This document shows, in pieces, positions 5,173 through 61,419 of a stretch of 64,000 nt of DNA. Numbering within the stretch: the stretch's first letter is position 1; each line of letters begins with the position of its first letter. Origin of the DNA: Ascaphus truei (Eukaryota > Chordata > Amphibia > Anura > Ascaphidae); assembly GCA_036426205.1 (NCBI GenBank), contig CM071571.1:117723076-117787075 (forward strand), read 5' to 3'. The notes beneath the pieces were generated by a model. The model was not told where the DNA came from and searched no databases. It saw only the letters and a list, made by a program, of their open reading frames with translations. Made by a program: the position numbers and the translations under genes.

Positions 5173-5174
5173 TA

Positions 5175-20711: not shown

Positions 20712-20900
20712 CACAGACAATTTGAGATGTTTTTACCTGAATTGAACTAAATTGAACTAAATAGACAGCAGGGTATGAGGATTGCAGGACACACAGACAA
20801 TTTGAGATGTTTTTACCTAAATTGAACTAAATTGAACTAAATAGACAGCAGGGTATGAGGATTGCAGGACACACAGACAATTTGAGATGTTTTTACCTGA
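20473..20900 (-). repeat. 80-bp tandem repeats (L2 5' region), second and longer block
   Basis: About 5.3 units of the same 80-bp repeat, with small differences (ACCTAA or ACCTGA, TTTAACTAA or TTGAACTAA). It is followed outward by a ~75-bp segment (20951-21027) that also occurs at about 20235-20310. The L2 5' end thus has both an 80-bp array and a flanking direct repeat. Confidence 0.85.
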
Positions 20901-32402: not shown

Positions 32403-32404
32403 TA

Positions 32405-32944: not shown

Positions 32945-32946
32945 TA

Positions 32947-34555: not shown

Positions 34556-35441
34556 TGAGATCTCGTCACTTTATACATCATCATGTGGAGATGCCAGTCA
34601 GCGGAACAGCTGTTGAGCTGTGTTGCAAAGTAGCTCCATGGTGCTGCGAGCTTCGAGTCCGGGGATTTGGTGTACTGGGTCCTAGTTGAATTATTTCAAA
34701 GGACCTTCTCAGCTCTCACTGGGACATTGTGGAGCCTACTTTTACTTTTTTTTAATTGTAAGTCTATGCTATACAGTAGGTTTCTGTGTCTTTTGTATTG
34801 TTGTCTTGAAGAGCCGGTTGGATTATTGTATTTGGTGGGAGAATGCAGCACCCACTGTAAACTCATGCAGCAAGGAAGTGGATAAATGGAAAATCACTAT
34901 ATACAGTGGCGGCCGCCTTTATCCTAATGCGGCTGGATCCACGGCGCTCTGATAATCAGGGCCAGATGCGGTTTTTTTTTTTTGGTCCGGAGTGAATTGC
35001 GTTATTTTAACGGTCGGGATATTAGCATTTGATTATCGCTGTCTGCAATACTGCAATACCGTCTAAAAACTCAGGGGGGCGTTCGCGAGTTGTTGTCTTG
35101 GATGTCTAATACTTTAGCACTTCAACCTACGTCAGTACACAGTCTGCGTGTGCGCGCGCAGTAATTGTAAATTTGCATATTTACAGTATACATGCATTTG
35201 CAGTGCTGTATGTCTCATTTGAAAATTGTTGAAATGCATAGGCGTGTACAGTACTGTAACAGTATCACATTTCAGCATATACAGCGGTCTTCCCTTGCTC
35301 GCCCCCGCACACACACAGGATAATGTACTGGACTGCAGGGTATTTCAACTTCTTATCTTCTCTACAGTGCAGTACACCTCTCCCACACCATTCCTTTGAA
35401 TGTGTGTCTTTCTGGTTTAAATTACATTCCTGCTTAACAGC

Positions 35442-37400
35442 TGATGATTACTGCGCATGCGCCTGTAAATTCACCACTGCTTGCTTGAGTGAGTGACCAA
35501 AAAAAATAAAAATATTTTTTTTCTCTTTATTTTTATTTTCTCCACAAGCCTGCAAAAACCATCTTGATATTACGATATTCAATCTGTGCTGTAGCGTTTG
35601 ACTGATGTAAAGGGGGGTTAAGGCTGCACACCACAATATATAAATAAATACATACAGTTTACCGGTGCTGCTGGTTCAAGGAAGTACCTGCCAGGAAATT
35701 CCAAAGTACACTGAGGAAAAAAGAGAGATCCAGCGCTCCACGGATTTCAAGATGATGAATTTATTGTGCCACACGACGTTTCGACCAACAGGTCTTTTTC
35801 AACAAGGCATGTCACTTGAAATAAACCTGTTGGTCGAAACGTCGTGTGGCACAATAAATTCATTATTCTTGAAATCTGTAGCGTTTGACTGCACATGGTT
35901 GATTTGTGTGCTTTTTATGTACTGTATTTGGGGGTGTAGGGATCAAATTATTATGATGACCTGCCTTTTGAAATTATGTAATTTCTTTTAACTGCTGCCC
36001 AGCTACTGTAATCCTTCATGCAGCTGTACCCTGTACCCCCCACCCCCACGCACACACACAAGGCTCGCTCAAGGATTTGAAACTCTTATCGTCAGACACC
36101 TCTACAGAGTCATTCATTTTCTGAAGCTTGTCATTGTGTTATTAATCGGTCCCTAGCCGAGCGTCACCTCACTGCGCCTGCGTGTATTCCTCATTGAGAT
36201 GGGCGCTATCTGATTACTGCGCATGACTCACCCAACCCCCCCCCCCCAACCCTTTGAGGCTTTGTTTACGGTAACGCTTTGGAAAATCCCTTCTCGAATT
36301 TGATATGTAAATCTGATTTGCACAGCACTGTGAGAATTGAGAGTTAAAAAAACCATTAACTGATTCATGTTGTTTTGTCATTCTTTATTTTTCTTAGGTG
36401 TACTGTAGGTGTGGGGGGGGGGGGTTGTTGTCAATGATTATGATTATCATGAATGTAAATAAATATTTATTTAATTTTATCAGGAACCAAAAAAACAAAT
36501 ATAAAACGCTTGCCATTGTGTTTTTAATCCGTCCCTAGCCGAGCATCACCTCTCTATGCGCCTGCGTGTAATCCTCTTTGGGATGGGAGCTAGTTGATGA
36601 TTACTGTGCATGCGCCTGTAAATTCACCACTGCTTGCTTGAGTGAGTGACCAAAAAAATAAATATATATTTTTTTCTCTCCTCATTTTTTATTTTTATTT
36701 TCTCCACAAGCCTGCAAAAACCATCTTGATATTACGATATTCAATCTGTGCTGTAGCTTTTGACTGCGACCCTATGCGTTTGACTGCACATGGTTGATTT
36801 GTGTGCTTTTTATGTACTGTATTTGGGGGTATAGGGATCATATTATTATGATGAACTGCCTTTTGAAATTATGTAATTTCTTTGAACTGCTGCAGCTAAT
36901 CCTTCATTCAGCTGTACCCTGTAACCCCCTCCCCCACGCACAAACACAAGGCTCGCTCAAGGATTTGAAACTCTTATCGACAGACACCTCTATAGAGTCA
37001 TTCATTTTCTGAAGCTTGTCATTGTGTTTTTAATCCGTCCCTAGCCGAGCGTCACCTCACTGCGCCTGCGTGTAATCCTCTTTGAGATGGGAGCTAGCTG
37101 ATTACTGCGCATGACTCACCCAACCCCCCTGCAACCAACCCTTTGAGGCTTTGTTTACGGTAACGCTTTGGAAAATCCCTTCTCGAATTTGATATGTAAA
37201 TCTGATTTGCACAGCATTGTGAGAATTGAGAGTTAAAAAAAACATTAACTGATTCATGTTGTTTTGTCATTCTTTATTTTTCTTTGGTGTACTGTAGGTG
37301 TGGGGGGGGTTGTTGTCAATGATTATGATTATCGTGAATGTAAATAAATATTTATTTTATTTTATCAGGAACAAAAAAAACAAATATAAAAATAATCATG
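35442..37400. repeat. Two tandem ~0.87-kb units inside transposon copy 2
   Basis: The segment from about 35442 recurs from about 36597 (GCGCATGCGCCTGTAAATTC; GCACATGGTTGATTTGTGTG; GGAAAATCCCTTCTCGAATT). The first unit is lengthened by the 271-bp retroposon at 35605-35875. Copy 3 has the same pair of units, so the duplication predates their separation. Function unknown. Confidence 0.75.
35605..35875 (+). mobile_element. 271-bp retroposon with inverted hammerhead-like motifs and 16-bp TSD
   Basis: CTGTAGCGTTTGACTG flanks it (35589-35604, 35876-35891). It begins with a segment related to the one at 49471-49690 (ACCGGTGCT.CTGGTTCA). It ends in a ~60-bp foldback in which CCAACAG...GTCGAAACGTCG occurs in both orientations. 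The hammerhead-like core is degenerate (TTGAAAA or TTGAAAT for CTGANGA), though GAAACGT is kept. Probably a non-autonomous PLE or retrozyme-like unit. Confidence 0.7.
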
Positions 37401-38122
37401 AATAATACATAATGCAGTCTTTATTAATTCTTCTGTCAGATGGAAATTGAGGGCCGGTGGATAATCATGAATAATGCACATTGATAATAATATTAATTAA
37501 TAATATATAATATATAATAATGTATATATATATAGTAATATAATTTTTTCCGTCTTTATCTTCTTCCTCATTCTGGGTACAGTACAGTAGTCATTGAGAG
37601 AGGAGAGGTTTTGTGTACAGTACATCATGACTGCCGTTTAGATACTGTACACTTAACTTTACAAACAGTTCACTGACTGTACACGATACCCCCCCTCTTC
37701 CCCAAAACATCCTTTTTTTCTGAAAAGACAAGAAAACAAAAAATTAGTGCAGTTAGCATACTGTATTATTGCATTGTGTACTGTATAGCTACTCCATATT
37801 GGACTACAGTATGCAGTACTGTCAAACTAATCTATACTGGAACTACTGTATACCCTGACTACTATTAAATACTTTGTAACCAGGCAGTTGGTGCTGCTCT
37901 CTCTGGAAAGAAAAAAATTGAGCAGTTAGGTGCATACTGTATTATGGCATTGTGTACTGTATAGCTACTCCATATTGGACTACAGTATGCAGTTAGTACT
38001 GTCAAACTACTATACTGGAACTACTGTATACTCTGACTACTAGGAAAGAAAAAATCTGTGCCATACTTACCTATATCATACTGTACTTACAATACTACAG
38101 TACAGTACTACAGTATACCATA

Positions 38123-39196
38123 CTACCTTCCTGATGCTTGCCCATTACGCGCGATCACAATGGGCAACACAGTCACAATATGGTCAATATATTTATTGCA
38201 TCATTCCACGGTGAGTACATCGTTCCAAAAATACAATATGCCTTGCGCCAACTCATCCTTTTTGGAGGGTTTCCCGACTTTTCGGATATGGTCCTTCAGC
38301 TGATGCCAGACCATTTCGAACGGATTGAAGTCTGGCGATCTGTCATTGGAGGGGAAAAAAAAGGACAATTAGTTTAAGAGATACAGTACACAGTAGAAAC
38401 AGTGGGAAAAAATGAGACACAGTTACCGCACTTACTCCGCTGGCGTCTTCACCCAGTTGATACCGCGCTCAAGGATATGCGCTGTTGACGCGGTGTGCTT
38501 CGGATCGTTGTCCTGGTAGAAACGGTGACCATCCGGGAACTCACGTGTGATGTATTCCACAATCTCAGGCACAATTTTGTCTTGGAAGAAAGCTTTATTC
38601 ATGATTCCTATATCAAGAAAAGAAAAGTGCTCAAAAAACTGCACACTAGTACAGTACAGTGCGTAAGGCAAAAGCGTGTGACATATATTTTACTGTACCT
38701 TCAAAGATGACGATGTATCCTGGTCCACGTCTAGAGATGGCACCCCACACATGCATCTTCACTGGGTGTTTTGGACGTGGCTTCATAGATATGCGACCTT
38801 TTTTGTGGAATGCAAAGGTGGCAAATCTCTCCAGCGAAACAGTAGACTCATCAGTGAAGATGCAATCCTGGAAAGTTTCTCCACTGTCGATCCATGCCTG
38901 GGACTGGACCACTCGCTTGATTTTGTTAACGTCCCTTATCATGGGGTACGCTCTGTAATGACAAGGAATAAATAATTTTAGAGGTACAGTACAGTTTCTT
39001 TAACAACACTTTCACCTCCTGTACTGTCCAGTACTAACCTCACACGTCCATATTTCCATCCAATTCTGCGTCTCATCTTCTTTATGCTGTCTCGGATACA
39101 GTGAGATTGTGATTTTCCTGCAGAGTGTATTTGACCCTTAATGCACTCTTCTCATCATTCTCCTCACTTATTTTGTCGACCAGAAGAGTTGTCTCC
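38123..39196 (-). pseudogene. Intron-bearing DDE transposase of copy 2, exons 2-5
   Basis: Predicted minus-strand exons are 39196-39039 (helix-turn-helix part), 38952-38699 ([51 protein letters not shown]), 38607-38436 ([32 protein letters not shown]) and 38339-38123 ([18 protein letters not shown], ending QASGR). Introns have GT...AG ends at the same places as in copy 1. Catalytic D, D and E are all present. Defects: no exon 1 is found, exon 2 differs in length from that of copy 1, and a TGA at 38201-38203 replaces an Arg codon. Probably inactive, but a good second witness for the gene model. Confidence 0.85.
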
Positions 39197-39394
39197 CTAC
39201 AATGTACAGAAAAACAACAATCCGGTATTAATTAATTAATATGCAGCAATATAAACACTATATATACTGTTGATATAAAAATATACTGAAATAACTATAA
39301 AAATTAGATAGATCTACACAATATATTGTTCTATTAATATGCAGCAATATAAACAATATATATACTGTTGTTATAAAAATATACAGAAATATCC

Positions 39395-39960
39395 TTGACG
39401 CTGCCGCCGCTCTCCCGGAAACCCACAGGCCATCTTCGCCACTGCTCTTCGACGACGCTGCCGCTGGTGCCCCTGAAATCCACGGGTCACTTTCTCCATT
39501 GCGCTTTGACGACTCTGCCGCTTCTCGCCCGGAAATCCACAGATCACTTTCTCCATCCCTCTTCGACGACGCTGCCGCTTCTCCTCTCCTGGAAATCCAC
39601 AGGTCACCTCCTCCACCCTTTTCGGTGACGCTGCCGCTTCTCTCCATGGAACCCCCATCTCATCCTCCGTAGCACCCATCCACCCAGATGTCCAGAACCA
39701 GCTCGTCTTCCTTGTTAATTTTTAAGCACCACGTGTCCTACTTGGTGTACTGCGAGTGGGCCTACAAAGTGAACTATGAAAGAAATCGCGAAAAAAGGCG
39801 CTTCCCGACAATTTAAGAAAGACTATTGGGGAGGAATTGCGGCGCTTTTTTTCAATTACAGATCCTTTAATGAAAAGCGTTCGAGACTGCATTAATGGCA
39901 TTTTGCGCCATACAAGACATCGGCCCTGGAAGGACAATCTGGTGGGATACGCATTTGCGT
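39395..39960 (+). pseudogene. BEN-domain protein fragment of copy 2
   Basis: The first part matches the Ser/Pro/Asp repeats of the copy 1 BEN protein (repeats with PEIHRSLSPSLFDDAAAS-like sequence), now frameshifted. From about 39715 it encodes the BEN domain: FKHHVSYLVYCEWAYKVNYE, a frameshift, then LRKTIGEELRRFFSITDP, then VRDCINGILRHTRHRPWKDN. The N-terminus, coiled coil and linker are deleted. Lies just upstream of and divergent from the transposase remnant, as in copy 1. Confidence 0.8.
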
Positions 39961-40000
39961 GAGTGTTCAACTGTTGTTTATTTTTTGTAAATGTTTTGTT

Positions 40001-40094
40001 CCAGTCCCCGAGGGCCGCAAACAGGCCTGGTTTTCAAAGGTTATCCTGAAACCGGGCCTGTTTGCGGCCCTCGAGGACTGGAGTTGTGCAGGGC
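40001..40094. mobile_element. ~94-bp palindromic hAT-like MITE, copy a
   Basis: CCAGTCCCCGAGGGCCGCAA and its complement around a short loop, ending GGACTGGAGTTGTGCA. Related in its ends to 25198-25337. Duplicated with its flanks at 40325-40424. Confidence 0.65.
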
Positions 40095-40324
40095 TGACTG
40101 ACTGTTCTGTACACCATCCTACTGTAAATGTTTTGACTTGCTGTACTTTAAAAAGGAGATGTTCCCTTTTGTATATTTTATGAATAAAGATTTTTTTTTA
40201 ATAACACCATACTGTTGTGCTGTACTGTACATGTTTTGACTTCCTGTACTTAAATAAAGGAGATGTTGCGTGTTTTAACCTGTATTAATAAAGAAATGTT
40301 TTTACTTACTGTACACACAGGACC

Positions 40325-40424
40325 TGCACAATTCCAGTCCCCGAGGGCCGCAAACAGGCCCAGTTTTCAAAGGTTTTCCTGAAAACCGGGCCTGTTTGCG
40401 GCCCTCGAGGACTGGAGTTGTGCA
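40325..40424. mobile_element. ~100-bp palindromic hAT-like MITE, copy b
   Basis: TGCACAATTCCAGTCCCCGA at left and its near-complement ending GAGTTGTGCA at right. Its downstream flank (CTGACTGACTGTTCTGTACA and beyond) repeats that of copy a, so a ~325-bp block was tandemly duplicated rather than inserted twice. Confidence 0.65.
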
Positions 40425-41382
40425 GGCCTGACTGACTGTTCTGTACACCATACTACTGTAAATGTTTTGACTTGCTGTACTTTAATAAAGGAGATGTTGC
40501 GTTTTGTATATTTTATGAATAAAGATTATTTTTTAATAACAACATGTGACTGTAAACCATACTGACTGACTGTAAATGTTTTGACTTTCTGTACATAAAT
40601 GTTTTCACTTGCAGTAAACCATACACCTGTTGATGTTTTGAATTGCTGTGCACTTAAAATGTTTTTACATTGTACAGTATTTGTAAATAAATGTTTTTGT
40701 ACTTACTCCAACAATAAAAGAAAATGTTGATTTGTTTTAAATTGTTCCATTGTCTCCTTTTATACTGTAACAAAATACAGTGTTTCTAGAATGTACAGTA
40801 CTGTCCATCACAAGAGTATTAAAACAATACATGCTGTACGGGTATATAATACACATATGTACTGGAATATATGTAGAATAAATGCATCCTTTTTATTTTC
40901 TCGGGTTTATTATAAAGTATATATATAAACTGTAGTCTCTGGTACGTGTTTTTTTAAATACGATTCAGCAATGTGCAGGCATTGTTACACAAAGCGATAT
41001 TATCCATCGAAATCCCTCCATTTGCCGTTTTCCACATGAGATGTCAAAGTTTTCTTTTCTGAGGAAAATATAAATAAAAGTTTTACTGTAATTGTCAGTC
41101 CCCTAAAGAAGTTCCCAGTCAGTCCCACCAATAATTTTCTTGGGGGGACGTCTCCTGTTCACATGCGCATGTGCCTACCGTCGATGTGATGACACGCATA
41201 TGCATTTCAAGAAGGTTCCAATGCGCATGCGCCTAGCATTCCACCAGTTGTTCAGTATCTACAGTACTGTAGAAGCCGCTCAGCCAATGATATTGCTTAC
41301 AGGAGAATCGCTTGACTTTTGAATTGCACTGATATTGATATTTTCAAAATAAAAAAAACAGAATAAAATACAGCAACATTAC

Positions 41383-41992
41383 TCACCATAGAATTTCCCA
41401 TTCAGCTGGCGCCGGCGCCGGGCCACTGCCAGTCCAGTATTCTTGATCATACACGTTGACAGGTGACAGCGGGACTACTACACCTGTAGTCAGCTGATGA
41501 GGCTGGAAATCGCTTAGGTACAAGAAAGCTTGCTCGAAACTGTACGCGAAATCCGGCTCAGGCTGCAGTTATCCATGCGTGGACAGACAGCAAGGGTTGT
41601 CACTGATGGTCGGACCGTTATTGGAAGCCGGTGCTGGTGCTGGCGCATTGCTTGCCAGCGACTGACGTTTCTTACTTGGTTTTAACACGACCTTTCGCCT
41701 TTTGCCGTCTGCATCATAGATACGGGAAAAACCTGGTGATACACACCAATACCCTCCAATAAATTCGGGATCAATACGAAAAAAACAGGGATCGCTACAT
41801 AACTTTTTCCTTATTGCACGCTTCCACACATGAGGAGCTGGCGAAAATTTGTAAAAGTCATAGTTTTCGATAAAATACTGATAAATTTGAACAACTGTTG
41901 CCATCTTAGCATGTTGCATTAATCGCGGCCAATATTAAATAAGCGTACGTTCTGTCGGGTTTTTGGAACACGGCCTGCACTTGTACACTCAT
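41383..41992 (-). pseudogene. Forkhead-domain gene of copy 2, frameshifted
   Basis: It starts MSVQVQAVFQKPDR (41992) and follows copy 1 closely. A deletion of about 2 bp near 41912 shifts the frame after INAT. The domain then continues (IYQYFIENYDFYKFSPAPHV, WKRAIRKKLCSDPCFFRIDP, GGYWCVSPGFS) with the basic KRRKVVLKPSKKRQ run. A stop lies at 41569-41571, beyond which the same frame continues with the conserved acidic tail (PEPDFAYSFEQAFLYLSDF) to a stop at 41383. The YW pair of the forkhead fold is intact. Right next to the right end of copy 2. Confidence 0.88.
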
Positions 41993-42714
41993 GGCGGCGG
42001 GAATCTCTGGACAATAACCAGACCAGAAACTGGTGATTGTCTTTCTTTAATATGAAAATCCTAAATTGATACATTATTGTAACCTTTTCCTTCAGTCCCA
42101 AGGCCAATTTACAATAGACCACTATGGTATCTTTTTTAAAACGAAACACATGCAACTCGACACATTACTGAAGTGCATGCGCATTACAATTCATGAATAT
42201 CTGCCATCTGGCGGATACACGAAGAATTGCAACCAATTAAATCCAAACCATTCTCAATAAACACATCAACCGCGCATCAACTGCGGCTGTGAATGCAACA
42301 TGAATGCGGTATGAATGCGGCATGAACGCGGTGAAGTGCGTAGCATTCGAAAAAAAATCCCTGAAAAATGCGGTGATGTTGGAGAATAAAAGGGGCCGCG
42401 ACAGTATGTTCTGATTTCATTATATACAGTATTACAGTCTGCGCAATGGGATCTTTTTCTCTATGTCTGATTGTAAAATGTATTGGAAGTGTGATTGTGA
42501 TTTGGATTGTGGCGATTTACAATAGAATGTATGAGAAGTCAGTTTTTAAAACACCTTTAATAATGTGTTATGCTAAATAATTAGGGTGGGCACTTTCACT
42601 GTTTTGGTTGTATTTGTTTTGTGTTCTGGAATTACATTATGGGGAAAAAATAAAATGTTTTCACATTTCAAACTTTTGTGCCAATCCTGTGTGTGTGTGT
42701 GTTCATTCATACTC

Positions 42715-42770: not shown

Positions 42771-43380
42771 AGGAGAGAGAAGAGAGGAGAAATTTACTGA
42801 CAGATACTCACAGAACCGCGACCGGAAGTGACGTATCGGGACGGAGCGGAAGTGACGCATCGGTGTGCGAGTGAAGCTGAAACATCCACCCGAGAGGCTG
42901 TATCCCAGTGGAGAACTCCACAGTGCCTGCGGGCAGCTGTTATAGGAAGGTGATCGACCCACAAAAGAGGGAACCCACGAGGGGAGAGATACCTGGATCA
43001 ACGCGCCCACCGCTGGAGGTACAAAGTCCCTGAGAGTGGTGGTTCACACCAAGTCACACCGGAGGAGGCTGAAGTTTAAACCAAAAATCCTTCTCTCTTT
43101 GATCACAATGATTGTGGTACATGCCTGAAATACTTGTTTTTATTGTAAGTGTTCATTTTTTAAACCCCATAAAGTCGAGTTTTTTTACATTATACTGGTC
43201 TGCACTATGGTTTATATTTCTTTTACATACACTTTGCTGCGGAGCTGAGAGCTGGAGACCCTATCACCTGGTGGGAATATCTGTACAGCAGAGACCATTG
43301 AGTGTCAAAACCGCTTGATTTTGACTTACATCTTGTAAGTAGACATCACATATGAGCCAAGAAAGAACGCAGAATATATA

Positions 43381-43779
43381 CACTGGCGACACACTTTATT
43401 CGAGCTTGGCTAGTCCCACGAATTCGGGTATACCCGGCTGTATTGAGGTTTGTGACTGTTTTCTGCCCGAGTGCATTGAGTTATTTTCCAAGCAGGGATT
43501 GAAGCATTTTATTCCCGCTGGCTGCAATACTGCACAGTATATATATATATATACTGCATTACAATTCATGAATTTATGCCATCTGGTAGACACGCGAAGC
43601 ATTGCAGCCTATTAAATCCTAATCATTATCATTTAACAGATCAGCCGCCCGTCAGCCAGGCATGAACCCAGGCTGGGAAGGCAAACGCAACGGGGCTTGT
43701 CAGAGGTGAGGAGCGGTGCATTCCAGGTATCTGCCAGGTACATACCGGGTATTTGCTCGAATAAAGTGTGTCGGTGCAG
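43381..43779 (+). mobile_element. 399-bp MITE, deletion derivative of the FOX/BEN transposon (copy 2)
   Basis: TA at 43379-43380 and 43780-43781. Same length as, and highly similar to, 4774-5172 in opposite orientation. Its left part parallels copy 1 of the transposon from 51080 (TTTATTCCCGCTGGCTGCAA) and its right part parallels about 61085-61314. It interrupts a retroposon copy, so it moved after that insertion. Confidence 0.92.
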
Positions 43780-43902
43780 TATCACTTGAATTTTATTGTC
43801 TGCACTTAGATTGTTTTTCTTGTTTTATGTTCTTTTCCCTTCATGCTCCCCCTGGATTACAACTGGTGTGTGTTCATACACACATCTTTTTACATTACAT
43901 AT

Positions 43903-51066: not shown

Positions 51067-51079
51067 CAAACAACATCTA

Positions 51080-51104
51080 CAGTGGCGACCAACTTTATTC
51101 TAAC
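51080..51104 (+). repeat. Left terminal inverted repeat of copy 1
   Basis: CAGTGGCGACCAACTTTATT plus CTAAC. It shares the CAGTGGCG and CTTTAT blocks with the left ends of copy 2 and of the 399-bp MITEs. Confidence 0.85.
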
Positions 51105-51439
51105 TCAGCTAGCACCGCGAATTTCAGAATATCCCGGTGATGTGCGGTTTGTGTCGTTTTCGCCCGGAGTGTATTGCGTTATTTTCGCTGCTGTGATTTA
51201 AGCATTTTATTCCCGCTGGCTGCAATACTGCAATGCCGTGTAAAAACGCATGGGGGCGTTTGCGAGCTGTTGTCTTTGGAGTCTAATACCTTCGCGGTTC
51301 AACCTACAGTACACAGTCTGTGCGTGCGCGCGCAGTAATAGTAAAATTGCATATTTAATTTATTTTAAAGTACAGTACTGTACATGCTCGGACCCTGTTG
51401 GGGTGAAGTGAGGGGGTTCCTAACATCTGGGGGCAAAAT

Positions 51440-53110
51440 GAATTTTAGTTCTATGGTGCGTACTGTCTTGTTGCCGTATTATTTTGGTGGGGCTGGCTGG
51501 GTACTTCTTTAGGGGGCTGACCATTACTGTACATTAAAACTTTTCTTTTTGTTTTTCCTCAGCAAAGAAAACAGCTAATGGGGGGATTTCGATGGATAAT
51601 ATTGTACTGTATGCTGATGTTTTCCGGCCGTACAGTATACTGTGTAATAAACCAGAATAAATAAAACTATGCATTTATTCTACATGTTCAGTATCGTTTC
51701 ATTATGTGTCTTCTACAGTATACTGTACAGTGGTATACAGTGCCTAACATCTATGGGCAAAAAGAATTTTATTTCTAGGTGCCCTAGAACAGAAGTTCCC
51801 ACACCAATTGCCCGTGAACTTGACCGAGGCCCTAAGTAGTTCCCACGCCAATTGCGCGAATATAATGTAAAATAATCCGTTCTGTGGGTCTGAGCGGGTT
51901 GAAATTTGCCTGGTCCTCATGCGGGAGGTCCCTTGCCTAAGTGGCAAAATATCAGCCTTGCACGACCCCCGGAACCGGAGATACCAAAAGACAGTTTAAA
52001 AGCACTTTACCAAAGTGGCTTTTTTTCTGCCATGCAAGTCAATGGCAAAAACCTGAACTTTAACATCACCCTGACTCCGTTCTGTTGCCACGAGAGGGTC
52101 GCAATTTGCCATGCAATCCTGCCGCAATTAGGACTACATGGTGACCGAATCTGAGCCCTCTAGGTCGAACAGAAACGGAGTTGTGGGTTCCAGGTTTCTG
52201 CTCATTCTGACTTTGCCGGTTCAAAGCTTTCTCCGCCATTACGCTCAATGGTAGGACCCTCCTTGCCGGCGTGACCCTTTCTCGCCGCCATTACTGCTCA
52301 GACTCTGTTGGGGTCAAGTGAGGGGGTTCCTAAAATCTAGGGGCAAAATGAATTTTATTTCTAGGTGCCCTAGAACAGAAGTTCCCACGCCAATTGACCT
52401 AGTTCCCACGCCAATTGCGCGCTCATTGCTCTTTTTTTACAATGTTGCCGATCTTGCGGCTTTGCGGTCAGGCAGTANNNNNNNNNNNNNNNNNNNNNNN
52501 NNNNNNNNNNNNNNNNNNNNNNNNNNNNNNNNNNNNNNNNNNNNNNNNNNNNNNNNNNNNNNNNNNNNNNNNNNNNNNNNNNNNNNNNNNNNNNNNNNNN
52601 NNNNNNNNNNNNNNNNNNNNNNNNNNNNNNNNNNNNNNNNNNNNNNNNNNNNNNNNNNNNNNNNNNNNNNNNNNNNNNNNNNNNNNNNNNNNNNNNNNNN
52701 NNNNNNNNNNNNNNNNNNNNNNNNNNNNNNNNNNNNNNNNNNNNNNNNNNNNNNNNNNNNNNNNNNNNNNNNNNNNNNNNNNTGCTGTTAACTATTTCAG
52801 CCACACACCTCCAGAGTTTTTAATCCCTCCCTAGCCAAGTGTCAATCGGCTGAGTCACCCTAGCCTACCATCCCCCACTCTCCACTGGGTCGTTGATCTT
52901 CTGCATATTGCCATTGTGTTCTTAATCCGCCCATAGCCGAGCTACAAACACTCAGTACGCCTGCGTCTAATCACACCACCCCCCTCCCCCAACCCTTAGA
53001 GGCCTGTTGTTTGAACGGTAATGCTTTGGAAAATCCCCTCTCGAATTGGAAATGTAAATCTGATGTGCACAGAACAGTGAGAATTGAGAGTACACAGATA
53101 TTGCAATGGT
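51440..53110. repeat. Left arm of large internal inverted repeat (copy 1)
   Basis: Reverse-complement matches 58140-60340 in collinear blocks: 51446-51530 with about 60240-60340; 51590-52477 with about 59310-60190; 52783-53100 with about 58140-58450. It includes a truncated inverted duplicate of the forkhead gene's 3' end. The central part is hidden by the gap. Confidence 0.8.
52478..52782. other. Assembly gap (305 N)
   Basis: Run of N inside the left inverted arm, just where the two arms would be hard to assemble. The other arm suggests that sequence like 58450-59310 may be missing here. Confidence 0.99.
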
Positions 53111-53955
53111 TAATGGATAATGATGGTTGTCAATGATTATGATTCGCAGGAAAGTGAATAAATATTTATTTTATTTTATCAGGAACCAAAAAATACAAAT
53201 ATAAAAATAATAATCAGGAATAATACATACAGTAATGCAGTCTTTATTAAGTTCTTTTGGCAGATTGAAATTGAATAACCATTTGGAAAACATTTGTAAA
53301 ACATGGGGAAACATGAGTAATGCACATTTATAAGAATATTATTTAATACTATATACAGTACTGTACTGTAATGTACTGTATAATATATACTGTATACTGT
53401 AGTAATATTTTTTTATTCGTCTTTATCTTTTCCTCATTCTGTCTGCAGTACAGTAGTTCATTGAGAGAGGAGAGGTTTTGTGTACATCATTACTGCTGTT
53501 TATATACTGTCATTTGACTATACAGTACAAGCAGATTAGACTGGATGCAACACCCCACCCACCCCTAGGCCACCCTTTTTCCTGAAACGACAAGAAAACA
53601 AAAAATTAGTGCAGTTACTGTACTGTACTGTACTGTACTGTATGTGCATACTGTACTGTATTATGGCAGAACTACTGTAGGTGGTTGGTGCAGCTTTCTC
53701 TCTGGAAAGAAAAAAATGGAGCAGTTAGTACGCAGTTACTGTAGTACTGCCAAACTAGTCTACTGTATACTGTAAAAACTGTATACTCTGACTACGGTTA
53801 AATTCTATGTACTGTACTTGAACCTGATGGCTGGTGCTCTTCTCTCTGTAAAGAATAAACTAACTACTGTAGTGTATACTCTTACTATCTGGAAAGAAAA
53901 ATTCTGTGCCATACTTACCTGTATCATACTGTACGTACAATACTACAGCACAGTA
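53111..53955. other. 3' non-coding region beyond the transposase, rich in TACTGTAC motifs
   Basis: AT-rich, with many copies of ACTGTA/TACAGTA and runs such as GTACTGTACTGTACTGTACT near 53625. It parallels 37210-38120 in copy 2. No ORF. Confidence 0.6.
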
Positions 53956-55947
53956 CTACTTTCCTGATGCTTGCCCATTACGCGCGATGACAATGGGCAA
54001 CACAGTGGCAATATGTCCTATATATTTATTGTAGCGTTCCACGGTGAGTACATCGTTCCAAAAACTCATTATGCCTTTCGCCAACTCGTCCTTTTTGGAG
54101 GGTTTCGCCACTTTCTGGATATGGTCCTTCAGCTGATGCCAGACCATTTCGATCGGATTGAAGTCTGGAGACCTGTCATTGGAAAGAGCTAAATTGGTTT
54201 AAGAGCTAAAAACAGTGAGGAACAAAAATGGGACACGGTCTACTGCACTTACTCCGCTGGCGTCTTCACCCAGTTGATGCCACGCTCAAGGATATGCGCC
54301 ATTGACGCAGAGTGCTTGGGATCGTTGTCCTGGAAGAAGCGGTGACCATTGGGGAAGTCGCGTGTGATGTATTGCACTATCTCGGGCACAATGTTGTCTT
54401 GGAAGAAAGCTTTATTCATGATTCCTATAGCAAGAAAAGAAAAGTGCTCAAAAAACTGCACAATAGTACAGTACAGTGCATACAGTAAGGCAACACTAGT
54501 CAAGTACAGTGCATTAGGCGACATTATATTTGATACATTTTACCTTCAAAGATGACAATGCATCCCGGTCCACGCCTAGAGATGGCACCCCACACATGCA
54601 GCTTCACAGGGTGTTTTGGCCGCGGCTTCAAAGATATGCGGCCTTTTTTGTGGAATTGAAAACTTGCAAATCTCTCCAGTGACACAGTAGACTCATCAGT
54701 GAAGATGCAATCCTGGAAAGTCTCCCCACTGTCGATCCATGCCTGGGCCTGGAGCACTCTCTTGATTTTGTTTGCGTCCCGTATCATGGGGTACTCTCTG
54801 TAATGACAAGGAATAAAAAAAATTAGCGGCACAGTGCAGTACAGTTTTCTAAACAACACTTTTACCTCCTGTACTGTCCAGTACTAACCTCACACGTCCA
54901 TATTTCCATCCAATGCTGCATCTCATCTTTATGCTGCTCTCGGATACAGTCAGATTGTGCTTTTCCTGCAGAGTGTTTTTAACACTTAATGCACTCCTCT
55001 CATCATTCTCCTCACTTATTTTGTCCACCAGAAGAGTTGTCTCCCTACAATGTAAAGAAAATATATTGTTTTATTAATATGCAGCAATATAAAATGTATA
55101 TACTGTAAATATAATGTTGTAATATTAAATAAATTGAAATATACAAAAAATATAGACTGCTGTACTATAAATATAAATATACACAATAAATATACTGTTG
55201 TAATATAAATATAAATATACATCCTATATATACCGTTGTAAGATAAATTGAAATATACAAAATATGTATACTGCTGTACTATAAATATAAATAGACAAAA
55301 TATATATACTGTTGTACTATAAATATAAATATACACTATAAATATACTGTTGTAATATAAATATAAATATACATTCTATGTATACCGTTGTAAGATAAAT
55401 TGAAATATACAAAATATGTATACTGCTGTACTATAAATATAAATAGACAATATATATATACTGTTGTGCTATAAATATAAATATACACTATAAATAAACT
55501 GTTGTAATATAAATATAAATATACATCCTATATATACCGTTGTAAGATAAATTGAAATATACAAAATATGTACAGTATACTGCTGTACTATAAATATAAA
55601 TAGACAAACTATGTTGTAATATAAATCAACAGAAATAACAACAGTATTACAGTAGATACAGAACTGTACTGTAGATGTACTGTACTTTATGAACAGTACA
55701 GTACGTACAGTACAGTTTTCTATATTTTTTTTTTGTTAAGTTTTATAAATATACTTACGCGTTAGTTACCCTTGGTGCCTTTTTCCGGTCTCTGTTTTTT
55801 CCGTATGCATGATAGCCCACGGTGTTTGATGGTACAATGAGGCCAGAAGTAGCTAACCAGCATTGGAAAAGCAGCAATTCGGTGTCCGCTCGTGTACATG
55901 TCCTTAATTCGCATGCTGAGATCCTTTGAAATCTTTATAACAGGCAT
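53956..55947 (-). CDS. Five-exon DDE transposase, Tc1/mariner type, DD32E spacing
   Basis: Cuts and joins the element's ends (family knowledge). Predicted exons: 55947-55759 ([20 protein letters not shown], a helix-turn-helix start), 55044-54889 (second helix-turn-helix: [20 protein letters not shown]), 54797-54544 ([19 protein letters not shown], then [12 protein letters not shown] with catalytic D, then [12 protein letters not shown]), 54424-54253 ([10 protein letters not shown], then [15 protein letters not shown] with second D), 54172-53956 ([18 protein letters not shown] with catalytic E, ending NGQASGK). Introns have GT-AG ends and their phases join correctly; copy 2 has the same junctions for exons 2-5. 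About 330 aa, the usual size. From the first D of DND to the E there are 32 residues, against 34 in Tc1. Exon 1 seems to hold a 1-base frameshift near 55850: downstream the frame that joins exon 2 reads [19 protein letters not shown]. So this copy may be defective. Confidence 0.85.
55060..55640. repeat. AT-rich minisatellite in transposase intron 1
   Basis: Imperfect tandem blocks containing ATAAATATAAATATACA, TACTGTTGTAATATAAA, and GTTGTAAGATAAATTGAAAT, recurring about every 130-190 bp with shorter internal repeats. Intron 1 is therefore about 0.7 kb, while the other introns are about 80-120 bp. Confidence 0.75.
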
Positions 55948-56112
55948 TGATGCGAGTAGAAAGAAATACAAACACAAGAATGTATATTCGATGTTTAGTC
56001 GATGTGTATTCAATGTGCAGTGAATCCACAAAATGGATGGTGTATTTATACGGTAATGACTCACATTAGAGTACTGTACGCCCACTTTCAACACCTGTAC
56101 CTGGTAGCCATG
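55948..56112. promoter_or_regulatory. Divergent promoter between transposase and BEN gene
   Basis: Only about 165 bp separate the transposase ATG (minus) from the BEN ATG (plus). A TATTTATA box lies at about 56042-56049, in the right place for the BEN transcript. This suggests co-regulation from one bidirectional promoter; start sites are inferred. Confidence 0.45.
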
Positions 56113-57603
56113 CATAAAAGGTCACACACTTTGAATAGCCCACCACTCGATGATCTTTATCTGAACTTGCCCCTGTCCAGATACTGCATTGTGCCACCTG
56201 CTTCCATGGAGCAGCCCCGTTTCTATGGACGCAAGAACCCACTCACCTCTGCCGTGCCTGTCATGCTGAAAAAGCGAAAGGCGGTTGCCATTTCCACGCC
56301 AAGGGCAAAGCGACAGGCTAAGGCCAATAAAGAAAACCTTCTGCTGACCCCAAAGGTTAAGGGTTTTCTTAGTCGTAAGCCTCATTATGTGAAGAAGATA
56401 TACAGTGATGTACTCTCGACGCAGAACGAATGGCAGCCAACCCATCGAATCCGCAGACCACTTACTCCCATATGCTTCGACGACTCTGCTGTAGCTGTCC
56501 CGGAAAACTTCAGCCCGTCTTCTCCACACCCATCTTCTCCGGTTCCATCTGACGACGCTGCCGCCTCTGAAATCCACGAGTCACTGTCTCCTTTGCGCTT
56601 AGACAGCTCTGCTTCTCGCCCGGAAATCCAAAGGTCACTTTCTCCATCCCTCTTCGACGACGCTGCCGCTTCTCCTCTACCGGGTATCCACAGGTCACCT
56701 CCTCCACTCTCCATCAATGCCGCTTCTCTCCATGGAACCCCCATCTCATCCTCCGTTGCACCCATCCCCCCAGATGTCCACACGCCATGCACAAGAAGCA
56801 GCTCGTTAGAGCGGATGCTGAATGGGATAAGTGTGGATCTCCCCGGGAATTCTATTGTGCTGGCAAAGATAGATGTGCTTCTGGAGACAATGCTAAATGT
56901 GGAGCAACGGATGCTACAAATGGAACAACGGATGGATCGACGGATGGAGAAGATAGAGGCTGACATAGCGGGCATACATTATTTGCTCGGTGCTAATGCC
57001 CCTGTTTCCCCGCCCCCGGAGCAGGGGGGTGACATGGATGTGATGAATGGGACCTTCGACCCCCTTCCATCAGCAAGTGCACCCCCTCCACCAGAAGATG
57101 TAGTGTACATGTATGCCGTTGAGGAGGACATGACAACCCCGTCAAGACCACGCCAGGAGACAACACGGCGACCAAGACCGGAGGAAAGCTTCCTCCCAGA
57201 CAACCTACCATCGCCCGTCGCCTCAAGCACACCCGTTCCCAAAAGACCTACACCCGCTCGCATCGAAATGGTGCCCGGCATCACCCTGTGCGATCTGCCA
57301 CCGGCGCTCAGAGAGAATAATAGGGTGAGGAGTGCTGGTGCACCCCACAAGTATGCCTTGATAATTTTTAAGCACCATGTTCCCTACATGTTGTACTGCG
57401 AGTGGGTGTTCAAAGTGAACTACGATGGGAATCGCGCAAAAAAGGCCCTTCCTGTCAATTTAAGGAAAAACATTGTGGAAGAAATGCGGCGCTTTTATAC
57501 AGTTACAGATCCTGTAATGAAAGGCGTTAGAGACTGCATTAATGGTGTTTTGCACCATGCAAGGAATCGGCCATGGACGGACAATGTGGAGGACTTTGAG
57601 TGA
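56113..57603 (+). CDS. BEN-domain protein with coiled coil, transposon-encoded
   Basis: The frame is open from 56002. I chose 56113 as the first ATG after the TATA-like box (496 aa); 56206 (MEQPRFYGRK, good context) is also possible. Order (numbering from 56113): basic N-terminus (LKKRKAVAISTPRAKRQAKA); about four imperfect ~22-residue repeats with a DDAAAS/IHRSLSPSLF pattern; a Ser/Pro linker; a coiled coil at about 246-285 (LLETMLNVEQRMLQMEQRMD, RRMEKIEADIAGIHYLLG); a Pro-rich, acidic stretch; then a BEN-like domain at about 405-490 (ALIIFKHHVPYMLYCEWVFK, LPVNLRKNIVEEMRRFYTV, MKGVRDCINGVLHHARNRPW). BEN domains bind DNA or chromatin proteins, so it may bind transposon ends, target chromatin or act on the host. 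No defects are seen; AATAAA signals follow at about 57688. A decayed equivalent sits at the same place in copy 2. The BEN call is by motif, unsearched. Confidence 0.75.
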   Translation, partial: HKRSHTLNSPPLDDLYLNLPLSRYCIVPPASMEQPRFYGRKNPLTSAVPVMLKKRKAVAISTPRAKRQAKANKENLLLTPKVKGFLSRKPHYVKKIYSDVLSTQNEWQPTHRIRRPLTPICFDDSAVAVPENFSPSSPHPSSPVPSDDAAASEIHESLSPLRLDSSASRPEIQRSLSPSLFDDAAASPLPGIHRSPPPLSINAASLHGTPISSSVAPIPPDVHTPCTRSSSLERMLNGISVDLPGNSIVLAKIDVLLETMLNVEQRMLQMEQRMDRRMEKIEADIAGIHYLLGANAPVSPPPEQGGDMDVMNGTFDPLPSASAPPPPEDVVYMYAVEEDMTTPSRPRQETTRRPRPEESFLPDNLPSPVASSTPVPKRPTPARIEMVPGITLCDLPPALRENNRVRSAGAPHKYALIIFKHHVPYMLYCEWVFKVNYDGNRAKKALPVNLRKNIVEEMRRFYTVTDPVMKGVRDCINGVLHHARNRPWTDNVEDFE

Positions 57604-58139
57604 GACCATACTGTTGTGCTGAACTGTATTGTACTGTATATATTTTGCCCTACTGTTACTTAAAATGCTTCAACATTGTATTTGTAAATAAATGTTTTTG
57701 TACTGACTCCACTAATAAAAGAACATGTTGAATTGCCTCACATTGTTTCCATTTGCTCCTTTGACAGTGTAACAAATGTAGAGGCTTGCTGCACGGTTGT
57801 TTTACTGCCTGGTTGCGCAATTGGCGTAGGAACTAGGGCAATTGGCGTGGGAACTAGGGCAATTGGCGTGGGAACTAGGTCAATTGGGAACTTCTGTTCT
57901 AGGGCACCTAGAGATAAAATTTTGCCCCTAGATGTTAGGAACCCCCTCACTTCACCCCAACAGGGTCCGAGCAGTACTGGCGGGCAGAAAGGGTCACGCC
58001 GGTGAGGAGGGTCCTACCATTGAGCGTAATGGCACGAAACGCGTAGAAGGTTGCAGCCTTCTGTTTTTATGTCCACACAATAAAGAAACATTTTTGCCAG
58101 ACCTGCCATCACCCCTTTTTTTTGCTGTGCGTTGCACCA
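57604..58139. other. 3' region of BEN gene; duplicated with 59218-59560
   Basis: Poly(A)-signal-like AATAAA near 57688 and 57713. The stretch ACATGTTGAATTGCCTCACA and the following ~80 bp recur at about 59222, and GTTAGGAACC.CCTCACTT... recurs at about 59448: a direct duplication within the element. Confidence 0.65.
57818..57887. repeat. 21-bp tandem repeat CAATTGGCGTGGGAACTAGG
   Basis: Three and a third units of 21 bp. Single and double units recur at 52390-52425, 51800-51865, 59360-59400 and 59925-59985, always in the arms of the large transposon. A candidate protein-binding array, untested. Confidence 0.8.
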
Positions 58140-60340
58140 ACCCACATTACTCTCAATTCTCACAGTGCTGTGCACATCAGATTTACATTTCAAATTCGAG
58201 AGGGGATTTTCCAAAGCATTACCGTTCAAACAACAGGCCTCTAAGGGTTGGGGGAGGGGGATGGTGTGATTAGACGCAGGCGTACTGAGTGTTTGTAGCT
58301 CGGCTATGGGCGGATTAAGAACACAATGGCAATATGCAGAAGGTTAACGACCCAGTGGAGAGAGGGGGTTGGTAGGATAGGGTAACTCAGCCGATTGACG
58401 CTTGGCTAGGGAGGGATTAAAAACTCTGGAGGTGTGTGGCTGAAATAGTTAACAGCACTGTAATTTCAAAGGGCATGTAAGGTTTAAACTGTCTTCTGTC
58501 TTCTGGAATTGATAAGGTTAAAAAGAATACGCTGGCCTTGCTATTTTCATGGGAGGCTATCGTAAATAGCTTCAGACCAACTGTTCAATGCCTGTCAAAA
58601 TATTGTTAAAACAAGACCACAGAGGATAGGGCTGCCTTATAAGTCACCATTGTATATGTCTCTTGCTCAGCAGTTAAATGTTTTAAGCTCTACAGAAAAG
58701 GCATTATGTGAAGGATACATGTAAATTTAGATGTGTACCCATATTTGTAACAGATGACAACTGTATTTTTGTCCCTGCCTTGTGTATATAAACCTGCTTG
58801 TGAACCATTAAAATTTAGTTGTGACAATTCAACAACCAGCCTCCTTGAATTCTCACAGCTCCGAGCTCGTATGCTACGCTAATTGAAATAATTATATATC
58901 TGTTTCGTTTCAGTAGCTCCCGGGAGAAAAGGTTTTGCTTGCCCTAGAAGGACCTGATCTGTAGAGATCTAACAGGGCAGTTCATCATAACAATTTGATG
59001 AATAAACCCCCAAAGACAACCCCCATATACAGTACATAAAAAGCAAGTCACTTTAACACTCTTTGCCCCATGCACCAAAAAATGTTTTGTGGCAGAAGAA
59101 TTTAATAAAGGCTTGCAGTATGTATTATTGTGTGTTGATGGTTAGATTGCTGTGCACTTTATGTTTCACATTGTACAGTATTTGTAAATAAATGTTTTTG
59201 TACTGACTCCACCAATAAATAACATGTTGAATTGCCTCACATTGTTTCCATTTGCTCCTTTGACATGTGTAACAAATGTAGAGGCTTGCTGCACTTTTTT
59301 TTTACGCCTGACCGCAAAGCCGCAAGATCGGCAACATTGTAAAAAAAGGGCAATGAGCGCGCAATTGGCGTGGGAACTAGGTCAATTGGTGTGGGAACTT
59401 CTGTTCTAGGGCACCTAGAAATAAAATTCATTTTGCCCCTAGATGTTAGGAACCTCCTCACTTGACCCCAACAGGGTCTGAGCAGTAATGGCGACAATAA
59501 AGGGTCACGCCGGTGAGGAGGGTCCTACCATTGAGCGTAATGGCGGAGAAAGCTTTGAACCGGCTAAGTCAGAATGAGCAGAAACCTGGAACCCACAACT
59601 CCGTTTCTGTTCGACCTAGAGGGCTCAGATTCGGTCACCATGTAGTCCTAATTGCGGCAGGATTGCATGGCAAATTGCGACCCTCTCTTGGCAACAGAAC
59701 GGAGTCAGGGTGATGTTAAAGTTCAGGTTTTTGCCATTGACTTGCATGGCAGAAAAAAAGCCACTTTGGTAATGTGCTTTTAAACTGTCTTTTGGTACCT
59801 CCGGTTCCGGGGGTCGTGCAAGGCTGATATTTTGCCACTATGGCAAGGGTCCTCCCGCATGAGGACCAGGCAAATTTCAACCCGCTCAGACCCACAGAAC
59901 AGTTTATTTTACATAATATTCGCGCAATTGGCGTGGGAACTACTTAGGGCCTCGGTCAAGTTCACGGGCAATTGTCGTGGGAACTTCTGTTCTAGGGCAC
60001 CTAGAAATAAAATTATTTTTGCCCATAGATGTTAGGCACTGTATACCACTGTACAGTATACTGTAGAAGACACATAATGAAACGATACTGAACATGTAGA
60101 ATAAATGCATAGTTTTATTTATTCGGGTTTATTACACAGTATACTGTACGGCCGGAAAACATCAGCATCAAGTACAATATTATCCATCAAAATCTCCCCA
60201 TTAGCCGTTTTCTTTTCTGAGGAAAAACAAAAAGAAAAGTTTTAATGTACGGTAATGGTCAGCCCCCTAAAGAAGTACCCAGCCAGCCCCACCAAAATAA
60301 TATGGCAACAAGACAGTACTCACCATAGAATTTCCCATTC
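58140..60340. repeat. Right arm of large internal inverted repeat (copy 1)
   Basis: Inverse of 51440-53110 (see that entry). The segment 58456-59215, with no recognisable gene and an LTR-like 3' part, has its counterpart within or lost at the N gap. Confidence 0.75.
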
Positions 60341-60907
60341 AGCTGGCGTCGGCGCCGGTCCACTGCCAGTCCAGCTTTCTTCATCATCCACGTCGATAGT
60401 TTGCAGCGGGACAAGTCCACCTGTAGGCTGGAAATCGCTTAAGTACATGCAAGCTTCATCAAAACTGCACGCGAAATGTGACTCAGGCTCAGGCTCAGGG
60501 TTGTCACAGACAGTGGGACCGTCATTGGAAGCCGGTGCTGGTGCTGGTGCTGGTGCATTGCTTGGCAGCGACTGTCGCTTCTTAGTTGGTTACAACATGA
60601 CCCTTCGCCTTTTGCCGCCTCCATGATCATAGATACCGGAAAAATCCGGTGACACACACCAATACCCTCCAACAAATTGGGGCTCAATACGGTGAAAACA
60701 GGGGTCGCTACATAACCTTTTCCTTACTGCACGCTTCCACGTATGAGGAGTTGGCGAAAATTTGTAAAAGTCATAGTTTTCGATAAAATAATGATAAATT
60801 TGAGCAATTGTTGCCATCTTATCATCTGTTGCATTAATCGCGGCCCAAATCAAATACGCGTAACTTCTGTCTGGTTTTTGGAAAGCGGGCTGCACTTGAA
60901 CACTCAT
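60320..60907 (-). CDS. Forkhead (FOX-like) domain protein, transposon-encoded; one internal stop
   Basis: From MSVQVQPAFQKPDR (60907) the protein has a forkhead-like winged helix at about residues 12-92: YAYLIWAAI (cf. YSYxxLIxxAI), KMATIAQIYHYFIENYDFYK (helix 2 region), TWKRAVRKRLCSDPCF (recognition helix, cf. WQNSIRHNLSLNxCF), and GGYWCVSP (cf. GxYWxLxP). A basic GGGKRRRVML run follows. TAA at 60590-60592 then interrupts a frame that continues 89 codons: KKRQSLPSNAP, an Ala/Pro repeat, and an acidic, aromatic tail (PEPEPESHFACSFDEACMYL) to a stop at 60320-60322, by a GTGAGT splice-donor-like site. Copies 2 and 3 have Lys codons at the TAA site, so the stop is a recent mutation, or the short form could still be made. 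Sits beside the right end. Likely binds DNA; whether it binds the ends or host promoters is unknown. Confidence 0.8.
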
Positions 60908-61289
60908 GGCGGGTGTGTCTCTGGAGAATACTGTAACTGAAACTGGTCTTTGTCTTTCTTTAATATGAAAAGTCTAAATTGATACATTTTTGCAACCTCT
61001 TCCTTCAGTCTCAAGGCCAAGTCCAAGTTACAATAGCACACTGTGGTACAGTATCTTTTTTAAACGAAACACCTGCAAGCCGACACATTACTGATTCGGC
61101 GCATTACAATTCATGAATTTCTGCCATCTGGCGGACACGCGAAGCATTGCAGCCTATTAAAATCCGAACCATTATCAATAAACGCATCAGCCGGGCATGA
61201 CCCATGGCTGGGAATGCAAGGTGAACGCGGCATGCGCCAGGTGAACAGCGTCGCATTCCAGGAACCAGCCAGGGACAAACCGGTGATTT
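60908..61289. other. Right subterminal region of copy 1
   Basis: Upstream region of the forkhead gene and right end. Contains the ATTCATGAATTTCTGCCATC and CGAAGCATTGCAGCCTATTA blocks that are retained in the 399-bp MITEs, so it probably holds sequences needed for movement. Confidence 0.6.
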
Positions 61290-61314
61290 GTTAGAATAAA
61301 AGCTGCCGCAACAG
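61290..61314 (-). repeat. Right terminal inverted repeat of copy 1
   Basis: Reversed: CTGTTGCGGCAGCTTTTATT plus CTAAC. Matches the left end at CTG/CAGT, the GCGGC-type block, CTTTTATTCTAAC. Confidence 0.85.
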
Positions 61315-61419
61315 TAAATCACCATCATAATCTAATTCATCACCACCACAAGACAATTGTGACTACTGGGGTTGCGTGTGTCTGCAGTACTGATGACAGT
61401 GACCTATTGTACTGTATGT

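What the first reader, a model, noticed from the sequence alone, without database searches (positions are those of the whole stretch)
51078..61316. A 10-kb Tc1/mariner-class transposon carrying a transposase, a BEN-domain gene and a forkhead-domain gene
Seen: TA duplications, imperfect inverted ends, and between them a DDE transposase, a BEN-like protein and a FOX-like protein. The same order recurs in a second 7.5-kb copy (34904-42404). A third gutted copy keeps the FOX gene. Known: elements of this superfamily normally encode only a transposase in 1.3-2.4 kb. Inference: this is a large, possibly undescribed lineage that has acquired two regulatory DNA-binding proteins and moves them as a unit.
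Basis: partly seen in the sequence, partly recalled or inferred. Interest (0 to 1): 0.95.

Follow-up and report, generated by a model that had tools for sequence, protein, structure and literature searches.

The report
Frog transposon carrying a forkhead gene
A large jumping DNA element in a frog genome carries, besides the enzyme that moves it, a forkhead-type gene and a second protein gene, and related copies of these genes occur in well over a thousand places, which is unusual for this group of jumping elements.

Summary
Window 51078-61316 is a 10.2-kb Tc1-like transposon of the tailed frog Ascaphus truei: TA duplications, imperfect ~25-bp inverted ends, a five-exon DDE transposase, a long second ORF and a forkhead gene. 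A diverged copy (34904-42404) has the same order; a remnant (12110-21988) keeps the forkhead gene. Genome-wide tag counts: 928 exact 3' termini, 2448 forkhead, 2333 second ORF, 1068 transposase. 29 of 30 forkhead loci read end at the same terminus. On one chromosome exact tags pair up 34 to 80 times more often than in shifted controls. A second complete copy has all three genes between the same ends, but with the transposase/second-ORF core inverted between long inverted arms. Transposase shows strong purifying selection (dN/dS 0.2, two copies), the forkhead domain weaker (0.41, p=0.048), the rest of that gene none detectable. The 'BEN' label is unconfirmed: no Pfam, PDB or fold match. Three-gene Tc1/mariner elements were known from ciliates; nine literature searches showed none with a forkhead gene. 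Functions of the two extra proteins are inferred.

The parts
51078..61316 (+). Element A, complete 10.2-kb transposon including the two TA target duplications
51080..51104 (+). 5' terminal inverted repeat (imperfect)
   Evidence: 40 of 40 scored genome matches to 51078-51357 start at base 1 (3483 candidates, 40 scored)
61290..61314 (-). 3' terminal inverted repeat (imperfect)
   Evidence: 928 exact genome matches to the last 23 bases incl. TA, allowing A or G at one site
51385..53092 (+). left long inverted arm (96-97% to the right arm where aligned; partly unread)
58148..60330 (-). right long inverted arm
55759..55947 (-). transposase exon 1 (N-terminal helix-turn-helix region); one-base frameshift in this copy
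54889..55044 (-). transposase exon 2
   Evidence: junctions 1-2 and 2-3 agree with NCBI model P0004
54544..54797 (-). transposase exon 3, first catalytic D
   Evidence: junction 3-4 as in NCBI model P0006
54253..54424 (-). transposase exon 4, second catalytic D
53956..54172 (-). transposase exon 5, catalytic E, stop; junction 4-5 inferred from splice signals
60320..60907 (-). forkhead gene (stop at codon 106 in this copy; homology continues to codon ~195)
34904..42404 (+). Element B, diverged second copy with the same order (shortened, frameshifted second ORF)
38123..39196 (-). transposase exons 2-5 of element B
41386..41992 (-). forkhead gene of element B (frameshifted, one stop)
12110..21988 (-). 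Element C, remnant with 5' end and forkhead gene, no match to transposase or second ORF, other repeats inserted
43379..43782 (+). 404-bp non-autonomous derivative with the same type of ends; related empty site at 14352-14364
4771..5174 (-). 404-bp non-autonomous derivative, second copy (96% identical)

Best explanation
A high-copy Tc1-like cut-and-paste transposon of the tailed frog Ascaphus truei that carries three genes. Shown: the ends, TA target duplications, DDE transposase, forkhead gene and second ORF belong to one element, repeated many times next to the same termini. Inferred: the transposase, spliced from five exons, binds the ends and moves full copies as well as short derivatives in trans. 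The forkhead protein, whose gene starts ~410 bp inside the 3' end and reads inwards, and the second protein, divergent from the transposase, are element-encoded accessory proteins. The most likely role is binding the element's own ends or long arms, to regulate transposase expression, silencing or target choice. Homologous recombination between the long inverted arms flips the transposase/second-ORF core.
For: Termini sharp in 29 of 30 forkhead loci read. Complete second copy with all three genes. From hit tables: BEN-FOX 14 pairs among 81 BEN places, 10 in the A arrangement, 4 flipped, 0 other; Tpase-BEN 15 of 40, all same strand. Exact tags on one chromosome, pairs vs shifted mean: BEN-FOX 26 vs 0.44; Tpase-BEN 16 vs 0.20, all same strand; Tpase-FOX 19 vs 0.25, in two arrangements only (13 and 6); BEN-3' end 24 vs 0.41; Tpase-3' end 12 vs 0.35. 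45 of 100 exact forkhead tags have an exact terminus downstream, 43 of them at 530-583 bp; shifted mean 0.053. Empty sites in three derivatives. In a tree of 95 rows the transposase falls, support 100/100, in a branch of 19 whose named members are a frog and fishes (names). Transposase exons 3-5, A vs B: dN 0.060, dS 0.305, 214 codons. Forkhead domain between subfamily majorities: 0.073/0.18. Second-ORF C-terminus, A vs B: 0.161/0.406, 78 codons.
Against: No functional data. The forkhead gene outside the domain is not distinguishable from neutral (0.126/0.141), and whole-gene constraint is weak (0.62, p=0.097). Pairwise among 8 end-selected forkhead genes plus A the ratio was 0.77, against B 0.68, against C 0.88 (one badly decayed copy included). 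Changes shared by three or more of 30 second-ORF copies gave 0.71, singletons 0.85: near neutral. Those 8 forkhead genes all carried stops, frameshifts or worse. Some copies keep forkhead without transposase (L071). Odd arrangements exist: 2 of 26 BEN-FOX pairs and 1 of 24 BEN-end pairs; 1 of 9 5'end-FOX pairs, 1 of 8 5'end-3'end pairs and 1 of 3 5'end-BEN pairs. Only 7 of 47 exact transposase tags on that chromosome have exact tags of both other genes nearby. Five of 30 second-ORF loci show no transposase exon within their 1.5-kb flank. Core inversion by arm recombination rests on anatomy only.
Confidence: 0.75

Rival explanations
1. Nested insertion: two elements, an outer one with the forkhead gene and an inner one with long inverted repeats carrying transposase and second ORF, stacked by chance and amplified afterwards.
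For: The forkhead gene lies outside the long inverted arms and the core inside; the core occurs in both orientations.
Against: The diverged element B has the same order, so the stack would be older than the A/B split; the arrangement recurs in many places; the short derivatives share the outer ends. Separate target duplications of a solitary core were not searched for.
Confidence: 0.12
2. The forkhead gene and second ORF are passengers: captured once, carried along because they lie next to sequences the transposase needs, without function for the element.
For: Forkhead gene outside the domain not distinguishable from neutral; second-ORF polymorphism near neutral; many decayed copies.
Against: Forkhead domain at 0.41 of neutral, p=0.048; copies of both subfamilies keep open forkhead frames of about 195-220 codons (ranked by protein similarity, hence biased); second-ORF C-terminus ratio 0.40 between A and B.
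Confidence: 0.25
3. Host genes flanking repeats, joined by assembly error or segmental duplication.
For: The assembly has 19235 contigs, and the window holds a likely false duplication elsewhere.
Against: 28 distinct flanks at the same terminus and 928 exact termini, on chromosomes and small contigs.
Confidence: 0.01

Closest known systems
Tc1-like elements of the Tc1/mariner (IS630) superfamily; nearest non-Ascaphus transposase Xenopus laevis LOC121396371 (53% over 99%), then fish Tc1-like proteins
   Same: DDE_3 transposase, TA duplication, short imperfect inverted ends, tree placement
   Different: 10 kb instead of ~1.3 kb with a single ORF (typical value from PMC7325037); five exons; 32 residues between second D and E (shared with 15 of the 94 other rows of the tree); two extra genes; long internal inverted arms
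Ciliate TBE elements (Oxytricha) and Tec elements (Euplotes)
   Same: Tc1/mariner elements with three ORFs; the extra ORFs of TBE are also under purifying selection (PMC4724952, passages; PMC7325037 section 8)
   Different: Ciliate hosts; DD34E; TBE extras are a 22-kD ORF and a zinc-finger/kinase ORF, Tec carries a recombinase; no forkhead gene mentioned in the passages seen
Plant MuDR, En/Spm and VANDAL elements with accessory DNA-binding proteins (recalled, no call)
   Same: Extra proteins that bind the element and regulate it
   Different: Other superfamilies, plant hosts, unrelated proteins
Forkhead (FOX) transcription factors
   Same: PF00250 and matches to many FOX structures, best FOXA2 E=4.1e-11
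   Different: Recognition helix WKRAVRKRL in place of WQNSIRHSL: the Asn and His that contact bases (recalled) are replaced by basic residues; the protein search, which needs shared 5-residue words, found only 3 Ascaphus relatives

Membership tests
Tc1/mariner superfamily | TA target-site duplication | tested here: met
Tc1/mariner superfamily | terminal inverted repeats | tested here: met
   imperfect, ~25 bp
Tc1/mariner superfamily | DDE/D transposase domain of DDE_3 type | tested here: met
   PF13358 E=6.6e-16; IS630 model NF033545 E=1.3e-19 but below its cut-off (70.8 of 100 bits)
Tc1 family (within the superfamily) | N-terminal helix-turn-helix of Tc3 type | tested here: inconclusive
   PF01498 E=0.16 for the query, below cut-off; annotated in relatives such as P0005
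Tc1 family (within the superfamily) | catalytic spacing of described subfamilies (DD34E, DD37E, DD41D, DD37D) | tested here: not met
   32 residues, as in 20 of the 120 listed relatives; 34 in 83; 17 not measurable. Hence filed as a Tc1-like member of the superfamily only
Tc1 family (within the superfamily) | single ORF, about 1.3 kb (typical rather than defining) | tested here: not met
   three genes, 10.2 kb; typical value from PMC7325037 section 5
Forkhead family | forkhead domain profile | tested here: met
   PF00250 60.2 bits, cut-off 27
Forkhead family | Asn and His of the recognition helix (typical of FOX factors, recalled; not part of the profile's definition) | tested here: not met
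   WKRAVRKRL in 28 of 30 loci, motif not found in 2; comparison with FOXA2
BEN domain family | BEN profile or BEN fold | tested here: not met
   7 of 7 sequences without a BEN match at E<=10, one with an unrelated match at 0.15; no PDB match. Fold open: models of low confidence (pLDDT 40.6 and 53.4), no significant Foldseek match
Ciliate TBE/Tec | transposase within the TBE or Tec clade | not tested
   no ciliate reference rows were put in the tree

The most novel reading that the evidence does not exclude
A vertebrate Tc1-like transposon captured a forkhead transcription factor, remade its recognition helix to read the element's own DNA, and coupled it to a second DNA-binding protein and to an invertible transposase core, so that it has seeded the frog genome with over two thousand forkhead genes and their binding sites.
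Probability: 0.3. Interest if true: 0.9.

Novelty: new variant of a known kind. Interest (0 to 1): 0.74.

Why it matters
Animal Tc1 elements are described as short, one-gene DNA transposons. One that carries an intron-split transposase plus a transcription-factor-type gene, with about a thousand exact termini and over two thousand forkhead tags, shows that this superfamily can acquire further genes in vertebrates. If the forkhead protein works for the element, it is a natural test of how a transposon recruits a host DNA-binding domain, and a possible source of new regulators for the host. It is also an annotation warning: many forkhead hits in this genome are transposon genes.

Tried and rejected
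BEN identity: Pfam, NCBIfam, PDB sequences, two AlphaFold jobs and one Foldseek search gave nothing; a scan of viral contigs with the C-terminal alignment found no relative. Rfam: no match in the window. A first forkhead constraint estimate (0.056/0.244 at 93 codons where B and C agree) was replaced by the less favourable majority comparison with five more B-type genes. The low ratios from the 30 protein-ranked forkhead loci were set aside as biased by ranking. A first co-localisation script used only part of the tables (37 BEN and 16 FOX rows) and was replaced (81 of 82 BEN rows, the second fragment of one place dropped; 150 FOX rows; 40 main places of 81 transposase rows; 40 and 40 end rows). 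A/B comparisons of the second ORF that ran across frameshifts were replaced by an aligned one. Literature: nine searches; in the listings seen (some partial: 15 of 32, 10 of 68, 8 of 16) no title or abstract start describes a forkhead-carrying transposon. Repbase and Dfam could not be searched. Cargo in other species could not be tested: no other frog genome is held.
Full report
What is in the window. Self-comparison shows three related elements and two short derivatives: A 51078-61316, B 34904-42404, C 12110-21988 (reverse) and 404-bp copies at 4771-5174 and 43379-43782. A begins TA-CAGTGGCGACCAACTTTATTC and ends in the imperfect inverse, followed by TA. A also has long internal inverted arms (51385-53092 and 58148-60330, 96-97% alike where aligned). 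The forkhead gene lies outside the arms, about 410 bp from the 3' end; transposase and second ORF lie inside them and are divergently transcribed.

Host. The forkhead protein's only relatives in the protein collection, at that search's sensitivity, are three Ascaphus truei proteins. The contig of P0001 has 248248485 bases, exactly the length of contig C4 of the window's own genome. The window is therefore from the tailed frog.

Transposase. Exons alternate with diverged introns in the A/B alignment. The first three deduced junctions agree with NCBI gene models of the same frog (P0004, P0006); the fourth rests on splice signals. Exons 2-5 joined match DDE_3 at 6.6e-16. In A, exon 1 carries a one-base shift; of the 28 other sequences in that alignment (K1 and L010 are one locus) only L011, nearly identical to A, shares it. 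529 proteins match, 120 listed; the best ones outside Ascaphus include Xenopus laevis at 53% over 99%. The second D and the E are 32 residues apart; of the 120 listed relatives 20 share this, 83 have 34 and 17 could not be measured (whose 21 unmeasured of 124 include four proteins that are not transposases). In a tree of 95 rows (the query and 94 of the 120) the 16 rows with 32 fall in one supported branch of 19, which also holds 3 rows with 34. A/B, exons 3-5: dS 0.305, dN 0.060 over 214 codons.

Forkhead gene. PF00250 at 2.2e-16, matches to FOX structures. The best-ranked copies often have an open frame of about 195-220 codons ending in AEWEILW or similar (150 scored of 15915 and of 14432 first-look candidates). 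In A a stop falls at codon 106. Between the A-type and B-type majorities the domain gives dN/dS 0.41 (p=0.048), the remainder 0.89 and the whole 0.62 (p=0.097). Within a subfamily changes look neutral (B against C 0.093/0.099; 0.77 pairwise among end-selected copies). This fits constraint in the moving lineage and decay after insertion, but it is modest evidence. The recognition helix reads WKRAVRKRL in 28 of 30 loci, not found in 2, against WQNSIRHSL in FOXA2. That the replaced Asn and His contact bases is recalled, not tested.

Second ORF. 533 codons are open in A; 80 near-full-length matches were scored in the genome, 83-100% identical, plus two fragments of one more (a capped list). Its conserved C-terminus looks like a BEN domain to the eye, but no profile, structure or model supports that. 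Models were of low confidence, so the fold is open. The protein search found one relative, in Ascaphus. A/B C-terminus: 0.161/0.406 over 78 codons. Among 30 copies ranked by protein similarity the ratio is 0.85 for singleton changes and 0.71 for those in three or more copies, which is near neutral.

Genome-wide linkage. Exact 3' terminus: 928 places, control 0. Tags with up to two mismatches: forkhead 2448 (control 0), second ORF 2333 (control 1), transposase exon 1068 (control 0). The tags differ in how conserved they are, so ratios between them are rough. On chromosome C1, among the listed exact tags, 45 of 100 forkhead tags have an exact terminus downstream, 43 of them at 530-583 bp; shifted control mean 0.053, maximum 1. 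Pairs within 9.5 kb, with shifted means: transposase-BEN 16 (0.20), all same strand; transposase-FOX 19 (0.25), 13 in the A arrangement and 6 flipped; BEN-FOX 26 (0.44), of which 22 in the A arrangement, 2 flipped and 2 in neither; BEN-terminus 24 (0.41), one odd; transposase-terminus 12 (0.35). Of 47 transposase tags 31 have at least one partner and 7 have both other genes, all by exact tags. From the protein and DNA tables: Tpase-BEN 15 of 40; BEN-FOX 14 of 81 (10 A arrangement, 4 flipped); 3' end-FOX 19 of 40; 5' end-FOX 9 of 40, one in the wrong orientation; 5' end-BEN 3 of 40, one on the wrong side; of 8 paired 5' and 3' ends 7 are in the expected orientation at 4.1-9.9 kb and one is not. 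25 of 30 second-ORF loci reach into transposase exon sequence within their 1.5-kb flank; five (L022, L028, L031, L036, L037) do not.

Complete copies and derivatives. K1 (L069+L070) spans 9.99 kb between the same ends with all three genes; its core is inverted and its arms are 98% alike over 1.2 kb. L071 is a 4.4-kb derivative with both ends and the forkhead gene but no match to transposase or second ORF inside it. Short derivatives with related ends inserted in other copies show clean TA duplications against empty sites, 3 of 3 examined.

Unbiased look at decay. Of 40 places chosen by the non-coding 3' end (40 scored of 3504 candidates), 19 adjoin a forkhead gene among the top 150. I read 8 of the other 21: 7 hold a recognisable forkhead gene, all with stops or frameshifts, and one is badly decayed; 13 were not read.

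Comparison. Tc1 elements are typically about 1.3 kb with one ORF; TBE and Tec of ciliates carry three ORFs (PMC7325037, passages and sections 5 and 8 read). TBE extras are under purifying selection (PMC4724952, passages). PMC12822217 (passages) lists an Ascaphus assembly, GCA_037306005.1 of 3.72 Gb, not this one of 2.82 Gb, and does not mention this element in the passages seen. The listings of nine literature searches showed no forkhead-carrying transposon. So this is a Tc1-like member of the Tc1/mariner superfamily, with a gene content not reported as far as these searches go.

Mechanism, shown and inferred. Shown: insertion of the ends at TA with duplication, shared termini, linkage, constraint on transposase. 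Inferred: trans-mobilisation of derivatives, accessory roles of the two other proteins, flipping by recombination between arms.

Noticed in passing
window 17860-20711: Two identical 1372-bp stretches of tandemly repeated, G-rich DNA lie next to each other with unread bases between them: probably a false duplication of the assembly.
   Followed up: no
window 32403-32946: A 0.54-kb imperfect palindrome (83% inverted self-match), possibly a foldback element; smaller ones at 6119-6234, 25199-25336 and 33723-33824.
   Followed up: no
window 28929-30325 and 50270-50756: Dispersed repeats: pieces match each other at 71-81% and match 15872-16235 and 25469-25769 at 94-96%.
   Followed up: no
L041, L047, L071: Copies of the element are inserted into sequence that matches elements A or B, a nested pattern.
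   Followed up: partly
window 35881-37391: A ~0.9-kb-spaced tandem duplication (94%) in the 5' part of element B; similar units in element C.
   Followed up: no
C6792 (L011): A locus identical at protein level to element A over residues 1-502 of the second ORF and sharing its exon-1 shift; perhaps an alternative haplotype of the same insertion.
   Followed up: no
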